In this document: one piece after another, positions 1 to 38,051 of the stretch
How the letters are laid out: each line of letters begins with the position of its first letter
Position numbering within the stretch: position 1 is the first letter of the stretch
NCBI RefSeq assembly: GCF_000332095.2
Contig: NZ_KI913951.1
Span: 1-64,000 of the forward strand
DNA: 64,000 nucleotides
Reading direction: 5' to 3'
DNA from: Leptolyngbya sp. PCC 6406
GTDB lineage: Bacteria; Cyanobacteriota; Cyanobacteriia; Phormidesmidales; Phormidesmidaceae
The notes under the pieces: generated by a model
What the model saw: the letters and a program-made list of their open reading frames with translations, nothing else
Told to the model about the DNA's origin: nothing
Database searches by the model: none
Translations under genes and position numbers: made by a program

Positions 1-480
1 ATACTATTCTTGTCCTTGCTTGTCTACCCTTCCTTTTCTGTGTACTTTCTTAACTATTTGAATATCTTATCTTTCCTGTTTATTTTTGTTTCTTGTCGTG
101 TAGAAAAGATAGGAATGGGCGGGGATCGCTGTTGTTATTGTTGGGGTGGAAAAGTTTCTGTATGCTGAAAGCCTTGCTATGCATGGGTTTCAGCCTTTTT
201 GATCGATGACTGGATTTTTGCGTTCTTGACTTTTGGCATTCTTCCTTTCCTGGAATGCTGGGGATCATCTCAAAATGATAATGATAGATAGTATATTCTT
301 ATTCATTTAACTTTACTGTTGTTTTTGTTCATCCTTGTCTTGACGTTTTGAGTCTTTGTTATTAGGTGTTTTTGTTGTTTTATGGGCATTTCAGCTTTTC
401 TTTTTATCTTGATTATATGGTTTGCTATCTTGACTATTAGATAAGGATTTGTTAGAATGTAGTCAAGAAAGGATGTTGGG
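1..480. other. AT-rich stretch without a convincing gene
   Basis: This stretch is clearly richer in A and T than the rest of the window and is full of short pyrimidine runs. Open frames exist on the minus strand, but their translations are low-complexity, lysine- and asparagine-rich and resemble no family I know. I see no RNA gene or clear hairpin. It could be a regulatory or decayed region preceding the small frame that starts at 481. Confidence 0.4.
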
Positions 481-621
481 ATGATTGGGTTTGATCGCAT
501 CGAGATTCAACGGCACTTGGAGGCGGGGTTGGATATTCGTGTTCAAGATCTCGTTCGGATGCAGCCGGTAAAGCCGCCAGAAGCGGTCTGGTGCGATGGC
601 AGGCTCATCAGCATTGAATGA
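481..621 (+). CDS. Small hypothetical protein (46 aa)
   Basis: An ATG-initiated frame of 46 codons begins MIGFDRIEIQRHLEAGLDI and ends in TGA. Its composition is that of a normal soluble protein, unlike the low-complexity frames just upstream, and it lies in the same orientation as the LPD29-type gene that follows. I recognise no domain. It could be a small partner of the next gene or a remnant of a larger one. Support rests only on coding-like composition. Confidence 0.3.
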   Translation: MIGFDRIEIQRHLEAGLDIRVQDLVRMQPVKPPEAVWCDGRLISIE

Positions 622-678
622 CCCTTGGCGTCTCTAGGAAGCGTTTGATGGCTCTACATCTCTTCTCTCTCTTCCGAT

Positions 679-1528
679 TTGCAGTTGTTTAGGTTTCTCT
701 TTATGGCACGTCGAATGCTCTCGTCTGTGGCTCAGCAGGCTAAGGCTTTAAGACAACAATTGAAGGCTGTTTTCCCGCTTTGCCAGTTCAGGGTGAGGTC
801 GTCTAACTACAGCTTGGGTTCTTCTATTCGGGTGTGCTGGATCGATGGCCCTATGGTCTCTGAGGTGGAGGTGATCGCTAATTAGGTATGTATCTGTCCG
901 ACGTGATGAAGGGTCGGGAGAAATCCTCTCTGGGGGGAATCGCTATGTCCACTGTGATAGACGGTTCTCGATCTCGGTCTTTGAGTCGGCGGTGATGACG
1001 GTTTGTCGGGATTGGGGGGTGGTGCCTGTGCCTCCAGTGGTCTGTGGGCAATCGGAGTATTCCTCGCCTCATATTCCCCATGAGGCTAATCCTCAATGTG
1101 TTGGCGGGGGTGTGAAGGATCTTCAGTGGTTGGTGATGGATGTTCTCGCTGAAACGTCTTTCTATCCGGTTCAGGTGGCTAATGAGGTTAGCGTTGGCGA
1201 TCGCGGGGGCGTAGCTGCTCTAGAGGAGCATCGCTCTGGTGCTGGTGAGGCGGTGGGGGGTGTTTTGAAGCTGGGGTCGCATTGGAATGCGGCGGCGACT
1301 CATCCTACGGTGGCTGACCTGCAATCCGTGGAGGTGGTGGAGAATCACGCCAAGAATGGCTTTGAACTCTTTTTTCCGGGTAAGCCGGATCTGGCTACTC
1401 GGCAATTGCTCAGGGCTTGTGGCTTTCGACCTAGCAAGAAAAAGGCAGGGGTGCGCTACGGAAGGTGGTTCTGGTACGCCAAGCGAACAGAAGGGACTTA
1501 CGAGTTTGTTATGGGACTTACTGGGTAG
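679..1528 (+). pseudogene. LPD29-domain protein, frameshifted
   Basis: The first frame, best started at the ATG at 703, contains AKALRQQLKAVFPLCQFRV and a WIDGPMV motif, as in the LPD29 domain of plasmid and phage polyvalent proteins. It stops at 883-885. The next frame (+1) continues the same domain from about 887 with GNRYVHCDRRFSISVFES and runs to 1528. Its C-terminal part, FELFFPGKPDLATRQLL followed by a WYAKRTE motif, resembles a small module common on large plasmid proteins. The shift therefore lies between about 872 and 886. A programmed shift or a base-call error are alternatives to a true pseudogene. I infer a plasmid or phage origin. Confidence 0.6.
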
Positions 1529-23413: not shown

Positions 23414-25489
23414 ATGCCAACATCTCAAATACTGGCAGAACACTGGCTCCAGTCTGCTGAAAACTGCGGCTCTACCCAATGGCTGAAGCAGTTCATTCGC
23501 TGCTATGTGGCGGAACTCCAGGGGGGACAACTCGGTGCTGAAGGGTTTGCCGAAGCGTTGGAGCAGGAATTCGCCAGCCGGATGCTCACGACCCCGGCCC
23601 AACAGAAGAACTATCGCTCTAACGTGGTTCAGGCGATCAAGGTCTTTGACCCTGACCACCCCGCGATCGCATTAGTCTCCCTCTCGACAGAGCAATACCG
23701 CATCCTCAACGACCAGCAGCGGGAACGCCTTGCCGATCGCGAAACTCGATTCATCACCAGTGCCGAGGCTGAGGCCATCGTAGACCGGGGAACACAGCTC
23801 ATTCATCGGGCGGAATGGTCAGAGGTGGGGGCTGGACTCGCTGTCCTTATCGGGCGGCGCATCAGTGAAATTGTGCTCTCAACTTTTTCGCTGAAATCAC
23901 CCTGGAGCTTGCAGTTTAGCCAGATGGCGAAGAAGCAGGGGACTCAGAACATCGCCATTGAGATTCCCACCCTGGCACCGGCCCAGACGGTGCTGGCTGC
24001 CATCGAGCGCCTACAGCAGGGACTCGGAACTGAGGCATTGAGGCTCCAGGGGTTGGCAGAGCGACAGGCAAAGCAGAAGGTGAATCAGCTCTACAGTGGG
24101 GCGATCGCTGATAAGTGCAACGAGCATTTCAGTGACCTGGTACCGGCCAGAACCGATAAGGAAAATCTCTACACCCACATCTTTAGGGCAGTTTATGCCA
24201 CGATTGCCGCCCACTGGTACTGTCCGCCCTCAGTACCGGAACATCAGTTTAAGGCGGAGATTCAGGGCCATTTCACGATCACTCAGGAAGGCAAAAAGCT
24301 GCCGAACTATGCGGCCCGATCCAATTACGACGACTATGCCATTGGCGATGGTCAAGGTAATCGCGATGGGCGATTAGGCATCAAGTTAGGCCAGGTCTCG
24401 AATCTGGACATCATTGAGGCATTCCGCCATCCAAAAGACTCCCCCGATCAGCCTGCGGTGGTTGAGGAGCAGATAGAGACTGAAATCGCCCCAGAGATCA
24501 CCTCAGAGGTCACCTCAGCACTGGCCCCAGAGCACCCGGATGAGACGAACCCGAATGAATCGCCCACAGCACTGAACCCCCAGGAAGCACCCCCCATGAC
24601 TGAAGCCGATGCCACGAAGCCGACGACCAAGCGCCCCAGTGTCTATGCGGACGATTTGGAGCGCATCACCGACCTGATGGCCCACCAAGGGATTACGGGC
24701 ACCACGGCGGATGTGATCCATGCCCTGGTGGCGGAGGTTGAAACCCAGAGAGCCCAGGCGGAACGACAGGACGTGCAAACGGCGGGGGAGTTTGCCCAGG
24801 CCATTAACTGGTTTACCCAGGAAATTGAAACGCTGCGGCGGCAGTATCACACCCTGGAGCAGGAGCACCGGACATTAGCGTCGCAGCCAGCGGACGGGGA
24901 GGAGGTCACGGCCTTGAAGACCCGTAATGCCCAGCTAGAGGCCCGCAATACGGAACTAGCGGCTGATCTGGAGGAAACGCGATCGCAACTCAATGCCATC
25001 CAAAATTTACTGGGGGGGATTCGCAGCGACACCCGTTCCCAGCCGGAAAAGCCGTCCGCACCTGCCCCAGAACAGTCCGCCCCCAAACCGACACCTGCGC
25101 CCCCAGACCAGCCGGTGACCCGTCACTCCCCCCCACCCAAAACCGAGGGGGTTTCCCGCCACTCCGATCGCGCCGACTCGACAGACAAGATTGCCGATGT
25201 CATTGATGCCATTATCAAGTGGAATACGGCCCAGGAGCGCCCAGAGCAGCGCTTACGCATCTCGTTTCCTTCAATCCGCAGTCTGGCAGTCTTGGTGGGG
25301 GCCAGTTACCTCCCCGCCATCAAGGAGGTGATCGCTGAGAAGCAGGCCGAGATTGATGAAATCCACGAGCGCTATATGATTGGCAGTCGGCATAATCGCA
25401 GTGTGCCGGACAAAGATGCGGTGCTTCAGGCGATCGCCTGCGATTACCTTGGGATTCCCAACTGGCAAGAGGCAACTTACGTTAATTAA
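23414..25489 (+). CDS. Protelomerase/telomere-resolvase-like tyrosine recombinase
   Basis: A 691-residue protein. Residues about 1-330 carry a core with the residue order of tyrosine recombinases: Arg in LIGRRISEIVLST (about 149), a Lys-rich turn FSQMAKKQG (about 173), HIFRAVYATIA (His255/Arg258), GH at about 285 and tyrosines in NYAARSNYDDYAIGDG. This layout matches protelomerase-family proteins annotated on cyanobacterial plasmids. Protelomerases cut palindromic sites and seal hairpin ends of linear replicons. The rest is an acidic/Pro-rich linker, a coiled coil (about 420-540) and a C-terminal helical domain. I saw no long palindrome next to it, so a plain site-specific recombinase remains possible. 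Confidence 0.6.
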   Translation: MPTSQILAEHWLQSAENCGSTQWLKQFIRCYVAELQGGQLGAEGFAEALEQEFASRMLTTPAQQKNYRSNVVQAIKVFDPDHPAIALVSLSTEQYRILNDQQRERLADRETRFITSAEAEAIVDRGTQLIHRAEWSEVGAGLAVLIGRRISEIVLSTFSLKSPWSLQFSQMAKKQGTQNIAIEIPTLAPAQTVLAAIERLQQGLGTEALRLQGLAERQAKQKVNQLYSGAIADKCNEHFSDLVPARTDKENLYTHIFRAVYATIAAHWYCPPSVPEHQFKAEIQGHFTITQEGKKLPNYAARSNYDDYAIGDGQGNRDGRLGIKLGQVSNLDIIEAFRHPKDSPDQPAVVEEQIETEIAPEITSEVTSALAPEHPDETNPNESPTALNPQEAPPMTEADATKPTTKRPSVYADDLERITDLMAHQGITGTTADVIHALVAEVETQRAQAERQDVQTAGEFAQAINWFTQEIETLRRQYHTLEQEHRTLASQPADGEEVTALKTRNAQLEARNTELAADLEETRSQLNAIQNLLGGIRSDTRSQPEKPSAPAPEQSAPKPTPAPPDQPVTRHSPPPKTEGVSRHSDRADSTDKIADVIDAIIKWNTAQERPEQRLRISFPSIRSLAVLVGASYLPAIKEVIAEKQAEIDEIHERYMIGSRHNRSVPDKDAVLQAIACDYLGIPNWQEATYVN

Positions 25490-25499
25490 CGGAATTATC

Positions 25500-26080
25500 A
25501 TGGCTGAGGTCTTACAAACATTTACCCCAGATTGGATATCACCCCCTGGTGACACCATTGCTGACTTAATTGAGGAATGGGAATGGAGCCAAGTTGATCT
25601 GGCAAAGCGACTAGGCTTTACGCCCAAGCATGTGAGCCTACTGATCAACGGCAAGGCTTCGATCACCGAGGAAACAGCGCTCAAGCTTGAAAGTGTCTTG
25701 GGGGGGAGTGCAAGCTTCTGGCTTAGGCGGGAAGCGCAGTACCGCGCCAAAATCGCAGAGCAAGAAGCGGAAACGAACTGGCAACAGCCGATCCCTGGGC
25801 GAGTGAATTCTTGATTCCCTCTGAATATGAAGCTGAATTGCCTAGCCTCAAATCAAAGCAATCGGTTAGTGAGTTCGCTGATAGGTTGGGAATCCATCCA
25901 GCAATTGCGGTCGGGCGATTACAGCATGATGAGGTAACTCCGATGAAGTGGATGAATGACTTCAAAGTACGGTGCGATGGGGTCTTTGTTCCGTTGAACC
26001 AGCAGCCTATCGATGATTTTGACCAAGCTGTAACTCATGTGCTGGATAAAAACCATGAGCTGTATGAGCACCTGTCCTGA
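25500..26080 (+). pseudogene. HTH-ImmA/IrrE antitoxin-like gene with internal deletion
   Basis: From the ATG at 25500 the product begins like the HigA/ImmA-IrrE addiction antitoxins: TFTPDWISPPGDTIADLIEE, DLAKRLGFTPKHVSLLING, SITEETALKLE. After about 98 residues the frame ends in a TGA near 25814. In a shifted frame the far C-terminus of the same family appears (WASEFLIPSEYEAELP, then LGIHPAIAVGRLQHDE). The central metallopeptidase domain with HExxH, normally about 230 residues, is missing. The last part (DDFDQAVTHVLDKNHELYEH) looks like the end of a Phd-type antitoxin instead. I read this as a deletion that fused two antitoxin genes. Confidence 0.7.
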
Positions 26081-26787: not shown

Positions 26788-28191
26788 ATGGCTAAACGAA
26801 ACGAGTTACCTCTCCTTGTTGCATCCTTACTCATAACGGCTATACTCCTGGGTGGTGGAGTATTACTATTCAAAGACAATATTTTTCGTTCAGCAGGGAA
26901 CGGAGATGAGAACAACACAATAACCAATCTTAATCTTGACGGAGCAGATGGAAGCTCTGGCACTTCCGTACTAGGAGGAGGAGTGCCTATCAACAAACAG
27001 AATGGACTGAAAGCACTTGCAGATGGGGATTATCTAACTGCCAAAAGAGAATTTGAGGCAGCCCTACGGGAAGAACCTAACGACCCAGAAGCGCTCATTT
27101 ACTTAAATAATTCCAAGATTGGGAATTCGGCATCTCATACAATCGCTCTTATTGTGCCAGGAGCAGAAGATGCAACAAAACTTGGGACAACACAGGAACT
27201 TATGCGAGGTGCTGCCCAAGCTCAAACAGAAATCAACACTTCCGGAGGCATTAATGAAACTTCCTTAAAACTGCTCATCATTGATGACAATGATAATCCT
27301 GAAACCGCAGCAGTAATTGCAGCTAATCTGGTCACTGAAGAAAATGTACTAGGAGTCATTGGCCATTTTTCAAGTGGGACAACTTTAGCAACAACAGGGA
27401 TCTATGAGACAGGACAGTTAACACTAGTGTCTCCTACAAGTACGTCAGTAGATATTTCCCAAGCCGGAAACTACATATTTCGAACAGTTTCGAGTGATCG
27501 CCTCGCAGCCTCCGTACTAGCCGAACATGCATTAGAGACTCTAAATAGTACAAAAGTAGCGATTTTTTACAACGAAAATAGTAATTACAGTAAGTCACTC
27601 AAATCAGAGTTCGAGACTGAATTTATACTTGGTTATGGTGAAATAGTTGAGGTCTTTGATATCAGTGATTCTAGCTTCAGAGCTACGACCTCAATACAAA
27701 TTGCCCAAGAAGAAGCTGACGTTTTGATGTTAGCCCTGTCACTGGATCCCCTCGATCCGTTAATACAGATACTCGCTTCTAATAAGGGAATACTTCCTAT
27801 GTTGGGAAGTGACTCTTTGTATAAATACCGGGTTTTGAGCTTAGGCAACGACAATGCAGCAGGACTGACCGTAGCAGTGCCGTGGCATATTCTTAACTAT
27901 GAAGAAAGTCCTTTTGTCAAGGAATCACGACAATTATGGGGTGAGGTAGATGTAAACTGGCGCACAGTAACCACTTACGATGCGGTAATTACGCTTGCAA
28001 CAGGCATTGAAGTAGATTCTACTCGTGATGGTGTAGCTACAGCACTGTCAGATCCAAACTTTCAAGCTGAAGGAGCAACAAGTGTAGTGCGTTTTTTGCC
28101 AAATGGAGATCGAAATCAACCTTTTCAACTGGTAAAAGTAGTTCCAGGAAATCGATCTGGAACTGGCTATGATTTTGTGCCAGTAGACTAG
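26788..28191 (+). CDS. Membrane-anchored TPR plus periplasmic-binding-fold sensor
   Basis: A 467-residue protein. Residues about 8-28 form one hydrophobic anchor (LPLLVASLLITAILLGGGVL). A short TPR-like helix pair follows (LKALADGDYLTAKREFEAAL, about 75-100), then a type-I periplasmic-binding fold of the branched-chain-amino-acid-receptor class (about 115-440): SHTIALIVPGAED, LLIIDDNDNPETAA, LGVIGHFSSGTTLATTGIYE and SPTSTSVD. No lipobox is present. It opens the five-gene run that continues with caspase, dynamins and a Pepco-like protein, so a role as extracytoplasmic or membrane sensor of that system is inferred. Confidence 0.75.
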   Translation: MAKRNELPLLVASLLITAILLGGGVLLFKDNIFRSAGNGDENNTITNLNLDGADGSSGTSVLGGGVPINKQNGLKALADGDYLTAKREFEAALREEPNDPEALIYLNNSKIGNSASHTIALIVPGAEDATKLGTTQELMRGAAQAQTEINTSGGINETSLKLLIIDDNDNPETAAVIAANLVTEENVLGVIGHFSSGTTLATTGIYETGQLTLVSPTSTSVDISQAGNYIFRTVSSDRLAASVLAEHALETLNSTKVAIFYNENSNYSKSLKSEFETEFILGYGEIVEVFDISDSSFRATTSIQIAQEEADVLMLALSLDPLDPLIQILASNKGILPMLGSDSLYKYRVLSLGNDNAAGLTVAVPWHILNYEESPFVKESRQLWGEVDVNWRTVTTYDAVITLATGIEVDSTRDGVATALSDPNFQAEGATSVVRFLPNGDRNQPFQLVKVVPGNRSGTGYDFVPVD

Positions 28192-28328
28192 GAAAAAATC
28201 GATCAAAATATTGATATCAATAAATTTGTCAAAGCCAAATTTTTAAGATGTTTCTGAATAAATCCATCGCAAAGACTAAGGCAACAACACATATCGTCCA
28301 AAGAGTCGTTATCATTTATCCTTGACTT

Positions 28329-29855
28329 ATGTCCAAAAACTGGGCAATCATTATTGGCATCAATGGTTACGTGCACCTAAAACAGCTAAATTATGCTGTT
28401 AAAGATGCTGATATAATTTGCAGTCTTTTTGACAAAGAATTTAAGTTTCATAAAGTCTATCACTTTACTGACACAAGCCCCTCTATCGAAGCAGACTATG
28501 GCAAATCTTTCGATTCAAACCCAACCTTTACTAACCTAAAATTGTTTTTCGATAAACGTTTTAATCAACCATTTATTGATGCTAGCGACAACCTCTGGTT
28601 TTTCTTTGCTGGGCATGGCGCTCGAAGGAACGAGCAAGACTACTTAATTCCCATAGATGGATATTCGGGTAATTTGCAGGATACAGCCATTCCAGTACGA
28701 TACGTCAGTGATTGCTTACGTCGAAGTGGTGCTGGTAATATCATTCTGCTTATAGATGCCTGCCGTAGTTCTGAGGGAAGCCGCGACAGTCTAAGCATTG
28801 GACAAGAGAAACAACACGGAGTCATTACAATATTTGCCTGTAGTCCAGAGGAGAATTCCTATGAGATTGAGGAGTTAAAGCAAGGAGCCTTCACCTATGC
28901 TCTACTTCAATGCCTACAACTAACAGGGCAAGAGAATTGCGCTACGGTCGAGCGCCTAGACAGACAACTACGCTTAACAGTTCCTGAAATCGTTATACGT
29001 TACAAGCAAAGATCCCAAACACCTTACACCGCCATAGAACCACTATACAAAAAAGATTTGATTTTACTGCCCCACTTAGCAACATCTACTGATCTTACTA
29101 AATTGTCACAGCTTGCTTGGAAAGCAGAAGCATTACATAAATTGGAAGAAGCTAAACAGCTTTGGACTCGGGTTTTATCTGCTTCATCTATTGAGCCAAA
29201 TGTCAGATCAGATGCTATAGAAGGAATTAGCAGAATCTCTAGGAATAAGAGTCAACCTAGAGCAGACTCAACAAAAAGTGAATTCAAGATCGAGACTGAT
29301 AGAGAACAGAGTGCTCCACACTCTGTTCAGGGTATCAACAGTGTAAATCCGCTTGAAACTTCAGCTCCCTCATCAAAAAGAAGACATAGTACATCAAAAT
29401 CTTTGCTAATTCAAACTTTGGAGTCTGATCGTGGAATTGATTATGAAAATTTAAGCAATTTATTACAGGAGCAGAGCTGGCAAACAGCTAATCAAGAGAC
29501 TGAATACTTAATGCTAAAAATTGCTCGAAGAGTATGTGAAGGTTGGCTTACTCACAAAGCAATTAAACAGTTCTCACAAACTGATCTAGAGAATATTGAT
29601 AGGCTCTGGCGATACTACAGTAATGACCGTTTTGGGTTTACTATACAACGACAGATCTTCATCAGCGTCTGCAAGCAGGAACAAGAGTTCATAGCAAAGG
29701 TTGCATGGAAAGGGGCATCTCTTCATGGTGGTTTAATCTTTTCAAGTGAAGCAACAAATGAATTGCAATACACAATAGATGCACCAGAAGGACATCTTCC
29801 CTTTATTTTCTGTGGAGAACATGCTTGGATATTTGAGCGATTAAGTAATAGCTAA
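28329..29855 (+). CDS. Caspase-like peptidase (C14) fused to a GUN4 domain
   Basis: A 508-residue protein. Residues 1-250 are a metacaspase/orthocaspase domain starting WAIIIGINGY. The catalytic His is in FFFAGHGARR (His96) and the Cys in LIDACRSSEG (Cys145). After a linker, residues about 371-445 are a GUN4-like domain: YENLSNLLQEQSWQTANQET, DLENIDRLWRYYSNDRFGF, TIQRQIF. GUN4 domains bind tetrapyrroles in chlorophyll synthesis; in fusions with signalling domains they may act as ligand sensors. Caspase proteolysis triggered by a bound pigment or lipid is an inference. The dynamin gene follows after 18 nt, so they are co-transcribed. Confidence 0.85.
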   Translation: MSKNWAIIIGINGYVHLKQLNYAVKDADIICSLFDKEFKFHKVYHFTDTSPSIEADYGKSFDSNPTFTNLKLFFDKRFNQPFIDASDNLWFFFAGHGARRNEQDYLIPIDGYSGNLQDTAIPVRYVSDCLRRSGAGNIILLIDACRSSEGSRDSLSIGQEKQHGVITIFACSPEENSYEIEELKQGAFTYALLQCLQLTGQENCATVERLDRQLRLTVPEIVIRYKQRSQTPYTAIEPLYKKDLILLPHLATSTDLTKLSQLAWKAEALHKLEEAKQLWTRVLSASSIEPNVRSDAIEGISRISRNKSQPRADSTKSEFKIETDREQSAPHSVQGINSVNPLETSAPSSKRRHSTSKSLLIQTLESDRGIDYENLSNLLQEQSWQTANQETEYLMLKIARRVCEGWLTHKAIKQFSQTDLENIDRLWRYYSNDRFGFTIQRQIFISVCKQEQEFIAKVAWKGASLHGGLIFSSEATNELQYTIDAPEGHLPFIFCGEHAWIFERLSNS

Positions 29856-29873
29856 AACTTCAAAGTATAAAAC

Positions 29874-31700
29874 ATGGATGCCAACCTCTCTTCTAACTCA
29901 TCATTGTTAGAATATCGAAAAGTCATCTTCATGCTTTCAGCTTGGCTTAGAAAGCTAATTGAAATTGCGGATAAGCTAAATCTACACAATATTTCACTGA
30001 CCTCAAAGGAAGTACTAAGTAAAGTGGAAAGCAACAATTTCTCAATTGCAGTAGTAGGGGAGTTTAAGCGCGGGAAGAGTTCTCTTATTAATGCTCTCCT
30101 AGGCCAAAACATTCTCCCGACAAATATTCTCCCAACAACAGCCACTTTGAACCGAATTAAATACGGTATTGAACCACGAATTCAAATAAAATTTAAAGAC
30201 GGAAAAACAGAGGATATTGAATCGGATAAACTATCTCAATATGTAACCAAGCTCACACCCGAGTCAACAAGAATTGCCGCCAGTGTTAAAGAAGCTACCA
30301 TCTACTATCCCATTTCTTACTGTCGAAATGATGTAGATATTATAGATACGCCAGGACTAGAAGATGAAGCTGCTATGACAGCAGTTACTCTCTCAACCTT
30401 ACCTAAAGTTGATGCGGCAATTTTTGTCACCATGGCTCTTGCACCATTATCTAAGTCAGAAGAAGTATTTTTGTCAGAAAAATTATTGAGGCAAAGCATA
30501 AGTCGTATTTTATTTGTCGTCACTGGAATTGACCGCTGCCAGAGTATCGAGGATGCAGATAAAGCCATTCAACGAACAAAGGACAAGATAAAGCAAATCA
30601 TTGGACTAGAAGTACAGAAAGAGTTTGACCCTGCCTATAGTCATTACAAAAAACAACTAAATCTAGTAAAGCAATTCGAAGTAATCGGTGTATCCGCATA
30701 CCAAGCCTTGCAGGCAAAGAAAAATGGTGACTCCAGCCTTCTAGATCAAAGTCGATTTTCTGAACTTGAAGCAGCTCTAGAAAGACTGATAGAGGAAAAA
30801 GGAAAGCTTTTACTAAATTTTTCTATAGATAAGGTTATAACTTTGAGCGAAAGCATATTACATGCAATTTCAACACAGAAGTTATCGCTTGAGAAAAAGC
30901 GAACTATCTTGACCAATAATTACAATCTAGTCGACTCTTCGCTTAATAATGAAGAAAGCGCCAAGGCAGCAGAGTACTTCGCGCAATATAAGGATCTTAT
31001 AAACGATATTCAACGTCAGATGGCTATTCTTCTAGAACAGTTAGAAAATAACCTTAAGGAAGCTGTAACCGAAGTACTTGATAAGATTTCATCAGCACTT
31101 TTTATAGGTGAGCATTCTCAAATTATCGAAAGACTAAAACGCCTAGATAACAAAATCATCGAAGTTTTAGAAAACCGCAGTCGCAGATGGGCAGGAAAAA
31201 TACAAGTCACCATTAGGCGTAATGTTTTAGAGACCCCAGAAATATGTCGTCCAGAGCCAGAACAGACATTACAATGGATGAATTCAGTTGGAAAATACGC
31301 AGTTGACCTTGGAAGCTCTCTCAAACAGCAATTATCACAGTCTTGCTTAGCCTCTAAGCTATACGGGATAACAGAAAGGGGGGCGACTGAGAAAAGCTTC
31401 TTAGAGCATTTTAGACATACGTATATAAGTCATCTTGAGACAATTATTATTCAGCATATTGAAAGCAGCAAAAGCTCTCGACAAGGACTAGAGGCTCAGA
31501 TATCCCAGGTCTTTAGTACATCAGCTCCAGGATTGATGCCACCCAAAGAAAAGGAACAATGGCTGGTTGAAAAGCGGTTAAGCATTGCTCGTGAAGAAAC
31601 CCGAATTGAACTTGCTCTACAAGAGCTTCAAGAGATACAAAAAGAAACGCAAGAAATCCAAGAAAATGCATACATTATCAAAGAACAGATCACTGACTAA
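29874..31700 (+). CDS. Dynamin-like GTPase A
   Basis: A 608-residue bacterial dynamin-like protein. The G domain has P-loop VVGEFKRGKSSLINALLG (G1, residues 60-77), the conserved Thr region LPTTATLN, DIIDTPGLEDEA (G3, 156-167) and VVTGIDRCQS (G4-like). The remaining 300 residues are long helices typical of the dynamin stalk. No clear membrane helix is seen, unlike its partner B. Dynamin pairs remodel membranes and several act in phage defence; the adjacent caspase and Pepco-like genes support a conflict role (inference). Confidence 0.85.
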   Translation: MDANLSSNSSLLEYRKVIFMLSAWLRKLIEIADKLNLHNISLTSKEVLSKVESNNFSIAVVGEFKRGKSSLINALLGQNILPTNILPTTATLNRIKYGIEPRIQIKFKDGKTEDIESDKLSQYVTKLTPESTRIAASVKEATIYYPISYCRNDVDIIDTPGLEDEAAMTAVTLSTLPKVDAAIFVTMALAPLSKSEEVFLSEKLLRQSISRILFVVTGIDRCQSIEDADKAIQRTKDKIKQIIGLEVQKEFDPAYSHYKKQLNLVKQFEVIGVSAYQALQAKKNGDSSLLDQSRFSELEAALERLIEEKGKLLLNFSIDKVITLSESILHAISTQKLSLEKKRTILTNNYNLVDSSLNNEESAKAAEYFAQYKDLINDIQRQMAILLEQLENNLKEAVTEVLDKISSALFIGEHSQIIERLKRLDNKIIEVLENRSRRWAGKIQVTIRRNVLETPEICRPEPEQTLQWMNSVGKYAVDLGSSLKQQLSQSCLASKLYGITERGATEKSFLEHFRHTYISHLETIIIQHIESSKSSRQGLEAQISQVFSTSAPGLMPPKEKEQWLVEKRLSIAREETRIELALQELQEIQKETQEIQENAYIIKEQITD

Positions 31701-31728
31701 CTATCTATCTAATCCTAATGAGACAAGC

Positions 31729-31884
31729 TCAAAACAAAGAATGACCACAGCTGGTACAAAAACGATCTCGCTCTAAAACTCTATACCCACATGACGGACA
31801 AAAGAGGAATGAAATATTTTGTTGTTTACTATATATAACTTCACGTTTTGGACAATCTTCTTCAGGAACAGACTCTTTTGTCAT
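31729..31884 (-). CDS. Small zinc-ribbon protein, probably 5'-truncated
   Basis: The minus-strand frame from the ATG at 31884 gives 51 residues with two knuckles, FLFCPSCGYRVLE and FCTSCGHSLF, a classic zinc ribbon. Upstream of this ATG the same frame stays open and encodes a hydrophobic stretch (NLYILDAIILTLGVLTVTT), as of a membrane anchor, but no start is found before the ISAs1 remnant. The original gene was probably longer and lost its 5' end to that insertion. It is antisense to the dynamin operon and lies just after dynamin A. Confidence 0.5.
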   Translation of the reverse strand: MTKESVPEEDCPKREVIYSKQQNISFLFCPSCGYRVLERDRFCTSCGHSLF

Positions 31885-31954
31885 TGTAGTAACAGTTAGT
31901 ACACCTAAAGTCAGGATAATCGCATCTAAAATGTATAAATTGTACTTGACAAAA

Positions 31955-32435
31955 GCGCAGTCATCCAGGTTCGCATAAAATCTGTGGCCCAGTAGTGCCA
32001 GAGAAGCTGAAGTCGTTACCCTAAGGGTATTCCAGCAGTTCAGTCTCAGTTAGTTAGCATCATGGCAAAAGAATTTGGCCCGCCGATTCTTTCTGCTCAG
32101 CAGCAGGAAGAAGAAGCTAAGCTCCTCAACAAAAACGTCCTTCAGCATTTTCAGACCTTGAAGGATCCTCGTGTGAAGGAAAGCCCCCATCCCTTGCTCT
32201 CTATTGTCACAATTGCCTCTTGGCGGTGCTGGCGGGTACCGATGGATATGTGGCCCTAGGGACCTATGGCAAAGCCAAGCAAGACTGGTTAGAAACGTTC
32301 CTCCAGTTGCCCCACGGAGTTCCCTCCCACGATACCTTTGGCCAGGTCATGAGTGCTCTGGAGCCAGAAGAGCTAGAGCGGGGTTTCTTGGCTTGGATTA
32401 GCCAACTGAACAATCATGAAGCCATGATATATTAA
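31955..32435 (+). mobile_element. ISAs1-family remnant (truncated, frameshifted transposase)
   Basis: A transposase start at 32062 (MAKEFGPPILSAQQQ) leads into LLNKNVLQHFQTLKDPR and HPLLSIVTIA, the N-terminal domain of ISAs1-family transposases. Around 32215 one base is missing, and the protein continues in another frame as LAVLAGTDGYVALGTYGKAK and VPSHDTFGQVMSALEPEELE. All homology stops near 32430, before the catalytic core. The left boundary of about 31955 is approximate. Confidence 0.75.
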
Positions 32436-32561
32436 TCAAGATAATAATCAAAGCAAAAAGCCATCCAAAGATTTAAGACCATACATTAAACAGAAAAATC
32501 ATAAAATAATCCGACTTCTAAAGCAACTCTTCTTGTTACTCTCAACTCCAGGAGAAATACC

Positions 32562-32747
32562 ATGACTACTGGTTTTACACCTTCATCAAATCAAATTCCA
32601 GGCACCTTTGCAAATTACAATAAGACCAAACTGGCTTTAATAAATGATTTAGAAAAGTTAAGAAGTTTTAGTAAAAAAATAGAGCTAAAAAATTCCGTAT
32701 CTCTAATTGAAAAAATCTTAGATAGAGTACACGATGAAACATTCTCT
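32562..32747 (+). pseudogene. Dynamin-like GTPase B, 5' part (interrupted by IS66)
   Basis: Sixty-two codons starting MTTGFTPSSNQIPGTFANYN and ending DETFS, just before the GTPase P-loop. A box AGGAGAAATACC precedes the ATG. The last 8 nt (CATTCTCT) are the left copy of the IS66 target duplication. Joined to 34335-36188 the frame restores a 679-residue protein. Confidence 0.85.
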
Positions 32748-34326
32748 GTAATTAGTCACCGCAACAAGAGGGGGCTATTGCGAATGAGGGGAAAATCGGT
32801 AAAGTAAGAGTCATGACGATTCAGCCGCCCTCAGACCTGAACCTGCCGGAGATCGCCCCCGAAGAGCAAGGGGCGAGGTATTGGTATGAGCGCTACTGCG
32901 AGCAATGCTCAGAGACTGAGCGCCTCAAGCAACGGGTGAAAGAGCTAGAGGAACAGTTCGAGACGTTGGGCGAGAAGCTCAAGAAAGTGACCGGGCGCAC
33001 CAGTGAAACGAGCTCTCAGCCGCCCTCTGCTGATGGCCCAAAGAAACCGAACCGGGATAAACGCAAGCCCCAACGCAAACGAGGCCCCAAATACAACCAC
33101 CCCGGTACGACGCGCAATGGCTTTGGTTGGATTGATCACACCATATTGCTCGACGTGGAGAAATGCCCTGTCTGCGGCGGTGCCGTCGAGCGCCAACCCC
33201 AGGGGACAAAACGCCAGCAAGTAGCTGAACTGGTGCCAGACCTCGTCGAGATTTGGGATTACGAGCGCCCGTTGTATCGGTGTCCGGCCTGCGGGTGGCA
33301 AGGCCACCAGGAGTTGCCTCTGGGGTGCCGGGAGGGGTTTAGCTATGGCGGACGGTTGAGTAGTGTGGTGGGCTGGTTGGGGTATGGGGGCAACCTATCC
33401 TGGTCAAAACAGCGTTATGTCGTCGAGAGCATCTTCGGTGTTCCGATGTCTCAGGGGAGTTTAGCAAAGCTGCATCAGTGGTTTTGTGAGGCTCTGCAAC
33501 CTGCCTATGAGCAATGGTGGAGCTGGATTCAACAACCGGGGGTGCGCTGTGTCGATGAGACCAGCTATCGCTTGAACGGGGTGAACCATTGGATTTGGAT
33601 CGCCACCGCCCCGGAGTGCTGCGCCCTGTTCTTTGCCCCGACCCGCAGTTCAGCCGAAGTCAAGACACTTTTGGGCGAGGACTTCGCAGGCATTCTCAGC
33701 AGCGATTGCTGGTCGGCCTATGGGCCGCAATCTGCGGTCGCCAAACAGAAATGCTGGGCTCACCTGGAGCGGGAGCTAAAGGCGTTAACCACATCTCGGT
33801 TCTCAGAAAACCGGGAATTCGCCCACCGGATCTTCCCCATTATCTACACCGCTCGCCAAGCCCACCGGGACTATCATCAGGGGCAGCTCAGTCGGGCTGA
33901 ACTCCAGGCTCTGCGGCCCATCATTGAGGCGGAGTTAGCCTATGTCCTAGAGCATCCTCTCCACGGACGCTGGGCTGCGGATGCCCAAGGGTTGGCGAAT
34001 CGGTTTCGGCGGCATTGGGCAGACTGGTTCACATTTCTTTCCCAGCCTGAGGTCAAACCGGACAACAATGATGCAGAACGGGGTCTACGGCCCGTGGTGA
34101 TTCATCGCAAAGTCAGTGGCGGTGCCCGCAGTGATTGGGGCGCTCAGTTAGTGGCGATGATGTTCAGTTTTCTTGAATCCATGCGTCGTCAGGGTAAAAA
34201 CGCCGTAGACCACCTCTTTGAGCTCATCGCCTCATCGGGGTGCTCCCCTCCTGCTCTCTTACCGGGATAATCCTGGGTCTCTGGAGGCTTTCTCATTAAG
34301 CCTCTCCTATTGCGGTGACTAATTAC
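32748..34326 (+). mobile_element. IS66-family insertion sequence (ISBst12-like), complete
   Basis: A 1579-bp element with perfect 17-bp terminal inverted repeats (GTAATTAGTCACCGCAA) and a perfect 8-bp target duplication CATTCTCT at 32740-32747 and 34327-34334. It carries only the large transposase and not tnpA/tnpB, as in the ISBst12 subgroup. Perfect ends suggest a recent insertion. Confidence 0.93.
32813..34270 (+). CDS. IS66 family transposase
   Basis: A 485-residue transposase. An N-terminal coiled coil (SETERLKQRVKELEEQ) and a basic, Pro-rich linker lead to zinc knuckles (KCPVCGGAVE, RCPACGWQG). The DDE core shows VRCVDETSYRLNG, ILSSDCWSAYGP and the final PDNNDAERGLRPVVIHRKVS. It appears intact. 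Confidence 0.94.
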   Translation: MTIQPPSDLNLPEIAPEEQGARYWYERYCEQCSETERLKQRVKELEEQFETLGEKLKKVTGRTSETSSQPPSADGPKKPNRDKRKPQRKRGPKYNHPGTTRNGFGWIDHTILLDVEKCPVCGGAVERQPQGTKRQQVAELVPDLVEIWDYERPLYRCPACGWQGHQELPLGCREGFSYGGRLSSVVGWLGYGGNLSWSKQRYVVESIFGVPMSQGSLAKLHQWFCEALQPAYEQWWSWIQQPGVRCVDETSYRLNGVNHWIWIATAPECCALFFAPTRSSAEVKTLLGEDFAGILSSDCWSAYGPQSAVAKQKCWAHLERELKALTTSRFSENREFAHRIFPIIYTARQAHRDYHQGQLSRAELQALRPIIEAELAYVLEHPLHGRWAADAQGLANRFRRHWADWFTFLSQPEVKPDNNDAERGLRPVVIHRKVSGGARSDWGAQLVAMMFSFLESMRRQGKNAVDHLFELIASSGCSPPALLPG

Positions 34327-34334
34327 CATTCTCT

Positions 34335-36188
34335 GTTGCTGTTGTAGGCGAATTTAATAGAGGCAAGAGCACTTTCATAAACGCATTGCTTGGGAAAGAA
34401 GTTTTGCCCTCAGATATCATGCCTTGCTCTGCGACTTTGAATCGCGTTACTTATGGAATGAAACCAAAAGTTGAAATTTCCTTCCTAGACGGTCGTAAAA
34501 GAGAAATTGATATCGATGCGCTGTCTGATTATGTTACTAAGCTGACACCAGAATCAAAAGAAAAAGCAGTTAATATTAGAGAAGCTGTGGTGTACTATCC
34601 AGTCCCATACTGCCAGAATGGCGTAGACATCATTGATACTCCAGGGCTAAATGATGAAGAAAGCATGACCACTGTTACTCAATCAGTACTGCCAAAGGTG
34701 GACGCGGCCATCATGGTCATGTTCGCACAGGCAGCTTTTGCTGAAACAGAGCGCAGGTTTTTGGAGGAAAAGTTGTTGGATACTGATATGGGGCGAATTA
34801 TCTTCGTTCTAACAGGTATTGATCGCTGCAAGAGTGACGAGGAAATTGACCAAGTTATCCAATACTCTAAAAATCGAATTGAGCATATGATTCTCAGCCA
34901 AGCACGAGAACGATATGGCGCAGATTCTCCTGAATATGAAGTATATCGGAAGAAAATTGGTAAGCCTAGAATATATGGTCTTTCAGCCTATGAGGCACTA
35001 GAGGCTAAGCTGTCTGGCAATAATCCTAAACTTCTAGCCAAGAGTCGTTTCCCTGAATTTGAGGCTGCTTTAGAGAAATTTCTAACAGAAGAACGTGGTG
35101 CGACTTTCCTTCAAGTTCCTCTTAACCGTCTTATTGCATCTGCAACTGAAATCATCAAAACTCTAAACATGCGCGAAAGCGCTCTAACTATGGATCAGAA
35201 CGAGTTTCGATCCACATATGAAAGATCGATAACTGAAATTCAAAAACTACGAGACCTTAATGCCAAAGAAATCCAAAAAATTGACGAGGCTTTAGCTAAA
35301 GTAAAAGCCAAGATAGATCCTTTAATTACTCAACTAGAGCCTACGCTTAAGCAAGCGGCAATTGAAATAGTAGATGGCACTGAAATCAAACCTGCTGAAC
35401 TAAGAAACCAGAAATCAGTTGCTAAAAAATTAGGCACTCAAGTTTCTCAAGTAGTAGAAAAGACTGCCAAAAAAATTGCTGAGGAAATTCAAGAAGAAAT
35501 CAATCAGGGGTTGCTGGAAGAAGTTAACCGTTTGCAGGACTTGGCAAATTCAGTGGACGCGGTCCTACACCGGATCGAAATGGAGTTTTCTACAGTTCAG
35601 GCAGATACACACTCTAAAGCTCGTGCTGATAACGAAACTGTAAGAGCAGCCATGAGCGCAGTCCCCATTCTTGGAGGAGCCTGGGTAGGTTATCGAGAAG
35701 CAGGTATCAAAGGAGCAGCTGTTGGTGCCCTTGGAACTTATGGAACGGCTTTTGTTGCCTTATTGCTAGGATTTCCAGTTTCAGCGCCAGCTATTGCCAT
35801 TCTAGGTGTTCTCTCTGCTTTTTCAGGAGGATGGTTAACCAAGGTTATATTTCGCTCAGAGCAGGTTAGTAACTTCAAGGAAAACTACAAAGAAGAAGTT
35901 TGTATTGCTATTCAAAATCAACTCCGAGACGCTCGCGTAAATCAAAAAGTTGATGCGCAGGTGGTCAATATATTTAGGATGCTGAAAGAGAAAGTACGTC
36001 TAGATGTAAATTCTCTACTAGATGATACACAACGTACCCTTACAGACTTAGATAAAGAGTTGCAGCGGAATGAGTTAATGACAGAGCATAAACGGCAAGA
36101 ATTTGAGAGCATAAGACGTGAAACAAATCGAATATTAGGAAACGCTCAACGGATGTCTGAGCAGTTGCTTCAGGAAGTCAACATGTAA
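34335..36188 (+). pseudogene. Dynamin-like GTPase B, 3' part (main body)
   Basis: The frame resumes right after the IS66 duplication with SVAVVGEFNRGKSTFINALL (P-loop), then DIIDTPGLNDEESMT and VLTGIDRCKSDEE. An internal ATG at 34386 lies downstream of the P-loop, so a product started there could not bind GTP normally. The C-terminal half has long helices and a hydrophobic paddle of two membrane segments (GAAVGALGTYGTAFVALLLG and PAIAILGVLSAFSGGW). Together A and B make a tandem dynamin pair in which B carries the membrane insertion. Confidence 0.85.
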
Positions 36189-36441
36189 ACTTTTACTTTC
36201 GATAAGTAGGTCGGGCTAATTAAACCGAGGCACATAAACGCATACTTGATCGCCTGAAATAGTTCGCACGCAAGGGCTTAGGGCTGTTTGATTTTCTTGA
36301 TGCACCTCGAATTTTATACGTCGACCTACTTAACACTCTTATGGCAATACTGTTTGATTTTGGAATGAAAGTGTCTCATTCGTCATAGATTTCAGGCTCC
36401 ATTCTTTTCAGTAATCACGTCAGATCCGTATAGCTTATCCC

Positions 36442-36861
36442 ATGATCTTTGTCCCTGATAACTCTCAGCCTAAAATGATTGAAGAAAACATACTTTGGGT
36501 CGTTGCGGAAACTGAAGTGGCGAAAGAAACACTTGAAGTTGATGGTCGCCGCTCTGGAGAAGATGTAACTGGTGGATTCGACTCTACTAAAGAAGCATTT
36601 GAAGCCTTTCAAACAATTATTAAGCGTAAGCGTATTTCTCTTGATGCAAAGGCACTAAAAACTCAGATGGAAAACATGGTATCTATTGTTAATAGTATCT
36701 TCGATCAAGCAACTTCTCAAACTAGCTTGCAACTTAATGAAGTTGAGCTTTCAGTCGAAATCAATGCTGAAGGACAATTAAGCCTTATCGGTAACGGCGG
36801 CAAACTGGGAAACAAGGGAGGCATCACATTAAAGTTCATCCGGCCTAATGATAATCATTAG
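36442..36861 (+). CDS. Pepco-like (peptidase co-occurring) domain protein
   Basis: A 139-residue protein. The second half (LQLNEVELSVEINAEGQLSL, then GGKLGNKGGITLKFIR) matches my knowledge of the Pepco family, small proteins encoded beside caspase or trypsin-like peptidases in bacterial conflict systems, often with a central helical part as here (ALKTQMENMVSIVNSIFDQA). It lies 253 bp after dynamin B in the same orientation. Its proposed role is to link sensing to the peptidase. Confidence 0.65.
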   Translation: MIFVPDNSQPKMIEENILWVVAETEVAKETLEVDGRRSGEDVTGGFDSTKEAFEAFQTIIKRKRISLDAKALKTQMENMVSIVNSIFDQATSQTSLQLNEVELSVEINAEGQLSLIGNGGKLGNKGGITLKFIRPNDNH

Positions 36862-36983: not shown

Positions 36984-38051
36984 TCAACCCCCCTCTTTAG
37001 ACTCTCCTTCTAACTGCCGTACCGCATTTTCCAGCTCCGATTCCAGTTGTTCAGCACTGGGTAAGGCATCGGGGGGCACCTCCGGCCAGCGATGTTCCGC
37101 TACGGCGATGGGATTGCGCAGATTGCTCAAGGCGTACTCCGCGATCGCCTTCTGGCGGGTCTGACACAGAATGATACCGATCGTCGGCTGGTCATGCTCC
37201 TTGCGGTTCTGGTCATCAATGGCAGCGATGTAGAAGTTCATCATGCCCGAATACTCGGGCTTGAAGTCCCCCATCTCCAACTCAATGACGACAAAGCAGC
37301 GCAGCTCCAGGTGGTAGAACAGCAGGTCAATCTGGAAGTCCTGGTCGCCAACGGTAATCGCGTAGTTATGACCGATGAAGGCAAACCCCACCCCGAGTTC
37401 GAGCAGGAAGTCACGCATGTGCTTCACTAACGCCCGCTTCAGATCCTGCTCCTCAACGTCCTTAGACAGGGTTAAAAAGTCAAAGGTGTAGGGATCGCGA
37501 ACAATCTGCTTGGCCAGATCCGACTGCGGTGCAGGCAGGGTCTTGGCAAAGTTATTGACGGCCCCACCTTCCCGTTGATACAGACGGGTTTTGATTTGTG
37601 CTACCAGCACATTCCGACTCCAGCCATTGGCAAGGGTTTCTCGCGCATACCAGAGGCGCTCTTGGGGGTCTTTTAGCTTCTCTAGCAGCGCAATGTTGTG
37701 GTACCAGGTAATTTGGCCAAGCACCGCTTGGCCAATTCCCTCTGGCCAAGCTTCAGCAAAGGCCCGCATGTACTTCAGATTGGAGCGCGAAAAGCCCTTC
37801 ATATCGGGAAACTCTCGCTTCAAATCTTGGGCCAAGCGATCTAAGACCTTAGTCCCCCACGCCTCCGCTTGCTGCCGCGCCAAAATCTCACACCCAATCT
37901 GCCAATACAGCAGCAGCAGCTCACGATTGACCGCCAGCGCCGCTTTGACCTGCGCTGAACGAATTCGGGTCTTGAGATCATCAAGAAAGGCACTGTAACT
38001 GCCTTCATCGGGCATCAAGCTAGATTTTGACAACCTGGATTTTGACAACAA
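36984..38051 (-). CDS. PDDEXK nuclease of the YhcG/DUF1016 family
   Basis: A 355-residue protein. The N-terminal DUF1016 domain has ALAVNRELLLLYWQIG, GFSRSNLKYMRAFAE and SWYHNIALLEK-like ITWYHNIALLEKL. The C-terminal nuclease fold has GVGFAFIGHNYAITVGDQDF, QIDLLFYHLELRCFVVIELE (the D and E-x-E/K catalytic pair) and QPTIGIILC. Length matches YhcG. Members act with restriction or DNA-repair systems or as stand-alone defence nucleases. Start may instead be at MPDEGSYSAFLDDL. It is preceded by about 170 bp with a short direct repeat of GGATTTTGACAAC type. Confidence 0.88.
   Translation of the reverse strand: MLSKSRLSKSSLMPDEGSYSAFLDDLKTRIRSAQVKAALAVNRELLLLYWQIGCEILARQQAEAWGTKVLDRLAQDLKREFPDMKGFSRSNLKYMRAFAEAWPEGIGQAVLGQITWYHNIALLEKLKDPQERLWYARETLANGWSRNVLVAQIKTRLYQREGGAVNNFAKTLPAPQSDLAKQIVRDPYTFDFLTLSKDVEEQDLKRALVKHMRDFLLELGVGFAFIGHNYAITVGDQDFQIDLLFYHLELRCFVVIELEMGDFKPEYSGMMNFYIAAIDDQNRKEHDQPTIGIILCQTRQKAIAEYALSNLRNPIAVAEHRWPEVPPDALPSAEQLESELENAVRQLEGESKEGG

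What the first reader, a model, noticed from the sequence alone, without database searches (positions are those of the whole stretch)
26788..36861. Putative conflict operon: TPR/binding-protein sensor, caspase-GUN4, two dynamins and a Pepco-like protein
Five same-strand genes with short gaps (apart from insertions) combine a membrane-anchored type-I binding fold, a caspase with intact His/Cys dyad fused to a tetrapyrrole-binding GUN4 domain, a tandem dynamin pair and a small peptidase-co-occurring protein. Caspases, dynamins and Pepco-like proteins are each linked to bacterial conflict systems; I know of no description of this exact combination. A GUN4-gated caspase could sense pigment or membrane damage caused by cyanophage.
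Basis: partly seen in the sequence, partly recalled or inferred. Interest (0 to 1): 0.85.

Follow-up and report, generated by a model that had tools for sequence, protein, structure and literature searches.

The report
Caspase-GUN4/Pepco pair with stray dynamins
On a probably linear cyanobacterial plasmid, a caspase-like protease and its small partner protein (Pepco), a pair found together in many cyanobacteria and probably a cell-death or defence switch, lie around an unrelated, transposon-broken pair of membrane GTPase genes, so the supposed five-gene system is really a mosaic.

Summary
The gene calls are right, but the five genes are not one system. Conserved unit: caspase (His96/Cys145 intact) plus Pepco. 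Of 47 such caspase places in 386 cyanobacterial genomes, 38 have Pepco within 3 kb, 34 directly upstream on the same strand. The caspase's C-terminal domain is exchangeable: FGE-sulfatase in 41 of 60, GUN4 in 16. Caspase-GUN4 fusions are already published. Pepco looks like a diverged Trypco1-type adaptor (suggestive).

The dynamins and the TPR/binding protein do not travel with it. None of 66 other caspase loci fetched on the caspase or Pepco has a dynamin of this kind; none of 80 dynamin loci has Pepco, GUN4 or the binding protein. The dynamins belong to a dynamin/M48-peptidase cluster found also in Bacillota. Dynamin 2 is cut by an IS66 insertion.

The 'tetrapyrrole-gated' reading fails its residue test: the porphyrin/bilin motif LxNxLR is lost (N211F, L213G, R214E) and no caspase-linked GUN4 examined keeps the Asn; the strain's own GUN4 orthologue keeps it.

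One lead supports caspase-dynamin coupling: a caspase-dynamin fusion in a Nostocaceae MAG. In passing: a telomere resolvase and 1.5-kb terminal inverted repeats.

The parts
28329..29855 (+). caspase (Peptidase_C14, His96/Cys145) with TPR-like linker and C-terminal GUN4-paralogue domain: core of the conserved unit
   Evidence: Pfam; alignment of 60 relatives; dyad; adjacency to Pepco; LxNxLR motif lost
36442..36861 (+). Pepco (PF24393), small soluble partner of the caspase; helix then three-strand C-terminus, weakly related to Trypco1
   Evidence: Pfam E 7.2e-29; phylum and family scans; adjacency; Trypco1 relation; low-confidence fold
29874..31700 (+). dynamin-like GTPase 1 (no hydrophobic paddle), 18 bp after the caspase; not a conserved partner
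   Evidence: Pfam; hydropathy
32562..32747 (+). 5' end of dynamin-like GTPase 2, cut off by the IS66 insertion
   Evidence: frame continuous with 34335 onwards across the 8-bp duplication
34335..36188 (+). rest of dynamin-like GTPase 2 (carries the hydrophobic paddle); groups with Hyella dynamin of the dynamin/M48 cluster (98/99 support)
32748..34326 (+). IS66-family element with DDE transposase (32813-34270), inserted in dynamin 2; 8-bp target duplication CATTCTCT
32060..32433 (+). frameshifted remnant of an ISAs1-type transposase (DDE_Tnp_1_assoc) between the two dynamin genes
   Evidence: E 5.9e-18
26788..28191 (+). membrane-anchored TPR/type-I periplasmic binding protein; extra copy of a chromosomal family, not linked to caspase elsewhere
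   Evidence: family scan

Best explanation
The locus is a mosaic on a plasmid. Its real core is a two-gene caspase-Pepco module of a kind common in cyanobacteria: a caspase with an exchangeable C-terminal sensor-like domain (here a GUN4 paralogue, more often an FGE/C-type-lectin-fold domain) and a small soluble partner, Pepco, probably related to Trypco1. Likely mechanism (inferred, not shown): the C-terminal domain recognises a trigger, which is not a tetrapyrrole bound in the usual way; Pepco, in the manner proposed for Trypco proteins, holds or assembles the caspase; activation cleaves host or partner proteins and ends in growth arrest or death of the cell. The dynamin pair came from a separate dynamin/M48-peptidase cluster, sits between caspase and Pepco only here, and is now broken by IS66. 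The TPR/binding protein is an extra copy of a chromosomal family. Shown: domains, catalytic dyad, caspase-Pepco linkage, domain swapping, lack of linkage for the other genes, motif loss, the IS insertion. Inferred: trigger, adaptor role, death or defence output.
For: Caspase-Pepco: 38 of 47 caspase places have Pepco within 3 kb, 34 directly upstream on the same strand at most 250 bp away; profiles find it in two more (L161, L103). In the window's own family the order caspase-then-Pepco recurs in at least six loci (L088, L121-L124, L127). C-terminal swap: 59/60 caspase, 41 FGE-sulfatase, 16 GUN4. Dynamins absent from all 66 other caspase loci fetched on the caspase or Pepco (L089, the one exception among 67, was fetched for its dynamins); no Pepco, GUN4 or binding protein in 80 dynamin loci. 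Dynamin cluster with M48 peptidase in cyanobacteria and Bacillota. Binding protein in 52 of 65 family genomes, with two chromosomal copies in this strain and none beside a caspase elsewhere. Pepco-Trypco1: Pfam Trypco1 profile touches a Pepco at E 4e-4; profile-profile P 2e-4 over the C-terminal strands. GUN4 ligand motif lost.
Against: The 18-bp gap between caspase stop and dynamin 1 start suggests co-transcription here. A caspase-dynamin fusion exists in one Nostocaceae MAG (L182) and a WD40-caspase lies beside two related dynamin clusters (L089, L182). Pepco is 6.6 kb from the caspase here, so the module may itself be decayed. Pepco-Trypco1 homology is only suggestive (probability 46%). No expression or phenotype data. 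The phylum scan is a sample of 386 genomes.
Confidence: 0.7

Rival explanations
1. The caspase, the dynamin pair and Pepco form one functional system: the caspase, once triggered, cleaves or activates the dynamins to remodel or rupture membranes (with the binding protein as an outside sensor).
For: Same strand, 18 bp between caspase and dynamin 1; a natural fusion of an EACC1-type caspase to a dynamin of the same subfamily inside a dynamin cluster (L182); a WD40-caspase beside dynamin clusters in L089 and L182; periplasmic-binding-protein domains are known fused to caspases (PMC2853523, PMC8283722, PMC7159879).
Against: No other caspase-Pepco locus has the dynamins, and no dynamin locus has Pepco or GUN4. 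The fusion was not found again in 386 genomes, and its caspase is of a different subfamily. Dynamin 2 is interrupted here.
Confidence: 0.12
2. A GUN4-gated caspase that senses free tetrapyrrole or pigment damage during cyanophage infection.
For: GUN4 profile match E 4.9e-33; Kaur et al. 2020 proposed that fused GUN4 domains sense tetrapyrroles (PMC7159879).
Against: Residues shown to bind porphyrin or bilin are replaced: N211F, L213G, R214E, F196L, W192A in Synechocystis numbering. An Arg-to-Glu change at the equivalent of R214 lowers Mg-protoporphyrin affinity about 12-fold in Arabidopsis GUN4 (PMC8967248), and a change of the Asn abolishes bilin binding in Chlamydomonas GUN4 (PMC10156173). 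FGE domains replace GUN4 in most relatives.
Confidence: 0.05
3. The caspase-Pepco module is not for defence but for regulated proteolysis or stress-related cell turnover, as argued for other cyanobacterial orthocaspases.
For: No high-scoring match to a known defence system; orthocaspases have been linked to homeostasis and ageing as well as death (text in PMC7517822).
Against: Patchy distribution (41 of 386 genomes), plasmid carriage, exchangeable sensor-like domains including FGE, which elsewhere serve as hypervariable receptors (PMC10907252), many decayed copies, and neighbouring candidate defence genes.
Confidence: 0.13

Closest known systems
Cyanobacterial caspase-GUN4 orthocaspases (cbMC-beta class, Jiang et al. 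2010, PMC2853523; GUN4 in 29 of 473 orthocaspases in PMC8283722)
   Same: Same two domains in one protein, caspase with GUN4 as accessory domain; in this window and its relatives GUN4 is C-terminal and the catalytic dyad is intact
   Different: Those papers describe single proteins; in the passages I read there is no mention of the neighbouring Pepco gene or of loss of the ligand motif
EACC1-caspase two-gene conflict system (System 4 of Kaur et al. 2020, PMC7159879)
   Same: Two-gene layout: small constant partner upstream, caspase with many alternative C-terminal domains downstream
   Different: Window caspase scores 59.6 bits against a cut-off of 140 for the EACC1-type caspase model; Pepco has no transmembrane helix whereas EACC1 has one
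Trypco1-trypsin pairs of VMAP and related conflict systems (PMC7159879)
   Same: Small partner protein encoded beside an effector peptidase; C-terminal strand pattern alignable with Pepco
   Different: Peptidase is a caspase; similarity of Pepco to Trypco1 is weak and below Pfam's cut-off
Eleos-type dynamin pair (PADLOC LeoA/LeoBC; the name Eleos is from my own knowledge) and bacterial dynamin-like proteins (2J68/BDLP, 5OWV)
   Same: Tandem dynamin-like GTPases, here one with and one without hydrophobic paddle; LeoA/LeoBC models match at 34-55 bits, BDLP at 4.9e-24
   Different: Scores partial; closest relatives form a cluster with an M48 peptidase and a third dynamin; here dynamin 2 is disrupted

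Membership tests
Caspase-Pepco module | Caspase with intact His/Cys dyad | tested here: met
   His96 in FAGHG and Cys145 in DACR
Caspase-Pepco module | Pepco gene as neighbour of the caspase | tested here: inconclusive
   Pepco present on the same strand downstream but 6.6 kb away, separated by the dynamins and insertion elements
EACC1-caspase system | Caspase above the NF047832 cut-off | tested here: not met
   59.6 bits against 140
EACC1-caspase system | Partner protein with one transmembrane helix | tested here: not met
   No hydrophobic stretch in Pepco
Tetrapyrrole-binding GUN4 | GUN4 fold by profile | tested here: met
   PF05419 114.7 bits against cut-off 29.2
Tetrapyrrole-binding GUN4 | LxNxLR porphyrin/bilin motif | tested here: not met
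   FxFxGE in the window; motif intact in the strain's own orthologue L006
Eleos (LeoBC/LeoA) | Strong matches to both LeoA and LeoBC models | tested here: inconclusive
   54.8 and 48.2 bits to LeoA, 33.5 and 40.8 to LeoBC, partial coverage
Trypco1 | Pfam PF19493 over its cut-off | tested here: not met
   Window Pepco not reported as Trypco1; best Pepco relative 23.7 bits against 24.6
Anti-phage defence system | Protection against phage that depends on the genes | not testable with these tools
   needs a plaque assay

The most novel reading that the evidence does not exclude
Caspases and dynamins are functionally coupled in cyanobacteria: a triggered caspase acts on partner dynamins to remodel or open membranes, an arrangement reached at least twice (the tight caspase-dynamin array here and the caspase-dynamin fusion in L182), with Pepco as the caspase's adaptor.
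Probability: 0.12. Interest if true: 0.8.

Novelty: new member of a known kind. Interest (0 to 1): 0.4.

Why it matters
It replaces a five-gene story by a testable two-gene one: caspase plus Pepco, with FGE and GUN4 domains swapping as C-terminal parts. It also argues that GUN4 domains fused to caspases are not pigment sensors but a reused fold with a different ligand, which bears on how such fusions have been interpreted. If Pepco is confirmed as the caspase counterpart of Trypco1, small partner proteins of that family would be a common way of controlling bacterial death proteases.

Tried and rejected
Megablast of the region against plasmids: no match. tblastn of the caspase and of dynamin 1 against plasmids: only partial-domain matches, best an Oscillatoria caspase-SAVED protein at 52% over the caspase domain. 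Pepco in viral contigs: no relative. Pepco profile against solved structures: only chance-level hits. Structure prediction of Pepco from a single sequence: pLDDT 51, too poor for a fold search, so none was run; only the order helix, three strands is noted. Promoter and terminator scans: no more sites than shuffles give. Search for further caspase-dynamin fusions in 386 genomes: none. Papers using the name Pepco for this domain: none found in the held library. The binding protein's long relatives turned out to be fused to kinase-like, TIR and other regions, judged from their N-terminal sequences and not by profile, so it looks like a generic sensor module.

Full report
What is there. The catalytic pair is His96 and Cys145. 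The second dynamin starts at 32562 and is cut by a 1579-bp IS66 element at 32748-34326 with near-identical inverted ends and an 8-bp duplication CATTCTCT; the frame is continuous across the empty site, so the insertion looks recent and nothing else is lost there. A frameshifted ISAs1-type remnant lies between the dynamin genes. Base composition drops to 38-43% G+C between 26 and 32 kb against 46-62% in most of the surrounding window, as expected of acquired DNA.

The conserved unit is caspase plus Pepco. In an even sample of 386 cyanobacterial genomes the caspase has 47 close places and Pepco 49. 38 of the 47 caspases have Pepco within 3 kb; in 34 it lies directly upstream on the same strand within 250 bp, and profile searches add two more (L161 and L103). 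Two of the remaining cases sit at contig ends. In the window's own family the order is often reversed, with Pepco downstream of the caspase by 0.2-2.4 kb (L088, L121, L122, L123, L124, L127), which is the arrangement seen here except for the length of the insert. Of 60 full-length relatives, 59 match Peptidase_C14, 41 carry an FGE-sulfatase domain and 16 a GUN4 domain. So GUN4 is one of several exchangeable ends.

Pepco. It is small and soluble (no hydrophobic stretch). The Pfam Trypco1 profile, run over relatives, touches a Pepco at E 4e-4, just below its cut-off, and a profile-profile comparison aligns the C-terminal strands of the two families with P 2e-4 and probability 46%. I take this as suggestive homology. 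Trypco1 was named for co-occurring with trypsin-like peptidases in conflict systems (PMC7159879). A single-sequence model gives helix plus three strands at low confidence.

The dynamins and the binding protein are not partners elsewhere. Across 67 other loci with a strong caspase match (about 7 kb each side where contigs allow), only L089, which was fetched because of its dynamins, also holds a dynamin. A scan of 84,980 species for the dynamin subfamily gave 80 loci with up to 10-kb flanks: none has Pepco, GUN4 or the binding protein. Those dynamins mostly sit in clusters of two or three dynamins (75 of 80 loci), and the clusters scanned by Pfam also carry an M48 peptidase. Dynamin 2 of the window groups with the Hyella member of that cluster with 98/99 support; dynamin 1 is a long, loosely placed branch. 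The TPR/binding protein has relatives in 52 of 65 family genomes, two of them on this strain's own chromosome, and none found beside the caspase.

The GUN4 domain is not built to bind tetrapyrroles in the known way. Porphyrin and bilin binding need residues of the motif LxNxLR after GHLP, with Asn211 and Arg214 in Synechocystis numbering (PMC10156173, PMC8967248). The window has GHLPFIFCGE there: Asn to Phe, Leu to Gly, Arg to Glu; Trp192 and Phe196 are replaced as well. None of the caspase-linked GUN4 domains examined has the Asn, while the strain's true GUN4 orthologue (L006) reads GHLPLSNQLR. Published work finds the same loss in GUN4 paralogues and links it to loss of bilin binding (PMC10156173). 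The domain therefore more likely recognises something else, or serves structurally.

Mechanism. By analogy with caspase-based and Trypco-based conflict systems (PMC7159879), I propose that the exchangeable C-terminal domain senses a trigger, Pepco holds or assembles the caspase, and the caspase cleaves targets so that the cell stops growing or dies. The linkage, dyad and domain exchange are shown; trigger, adaptor role and outcome are inferred. Whether the outcome is anti-phage is untested.

The best case for more. The caspase stop and dynamin 1 start are 18 bp apart, and a Nostocaceae MAG (L182) encodes a fusion of an EACC1-type caspase (NF047832, 156.7 bits, over its cut-off) to a dynamin of the same subfamily, between two dynamin genes of such a cluster. 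Related dynamin clusters in L089 and L182 also have a WD40-caspase close by. The fusion was not seen again in 386 genomes. I give functional caspase-dynamin coupling about one chance in eight.

Known relatives. Caspase-GUN4 proteins are described (PMC2853523, PMC8283722). The window caspase is not of the EACC1 type (59.6 bits against 140). The dynamin pair resembles Eleos LeoA/LeoBC only partially, and a dynamin does delay phage lysis in Bacillus subtilis (PMC8844932). The verdict is a new member of a known kind, in a mosaic and partly broken locus.

Noticed in passing
window 23414-25489 (+) and contig C3 ends (window 1-1528; L297): A 691-aa protein matches the ResT/TelK telomere resolvase catalytic domain (E 8e-29), and the 107,316-bp contig has terminal inverted repeats of about 1.5 kb (84% identical over 1.33 kb, plus a 34-bp match at the very end). 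The other two contigs lack them. This points to a linear plasmid with hairpin telomeres in a cyanobacterium and deserves its own study.
   Followed up: partly
L182:7422-9647: Fusion of an EACC1-type caspase to a dynamin GTPase domain in a Nostocaceae MAG, inside a dynamin/M48 cluster.
   Followed up: partly
L189:7100-14632: Bacillota version of the dynamin cluster also encodes a DUF2752 protein and a CD225/IFITM-like membrane protein beside an M48 peptidase.
   Followed up: no
window 36984-38051 (-): YhcG/DUF1016 PD-(D/E)XK nuclease, a PADLOC candidate defence gene (PDC-S02, E 1.4e-144), next to the locus.
   Followed up: no
plasmid NC_019763.1 of Oscillatoria nigro-viridis, 213363-214265 (hit H1): Caspase of the same subfamily (52% identity) in a protein annotated as SAVED-domain, suggesting another exchangeable C-terminal sensor.
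   Followed up: no
L140:2817-3335: A 172-aa ORF joins caspase residues 1-98 to the second half of Pepco, a deletion remnant of a caspase-Pepco locus in the same order as the window.
   Followed up: no
window 25380-25814 (+): HTH_3 protein resembling HigA-type antitoxins (resemblance judged from memory) just upstream of the locus.
   Followed up: no
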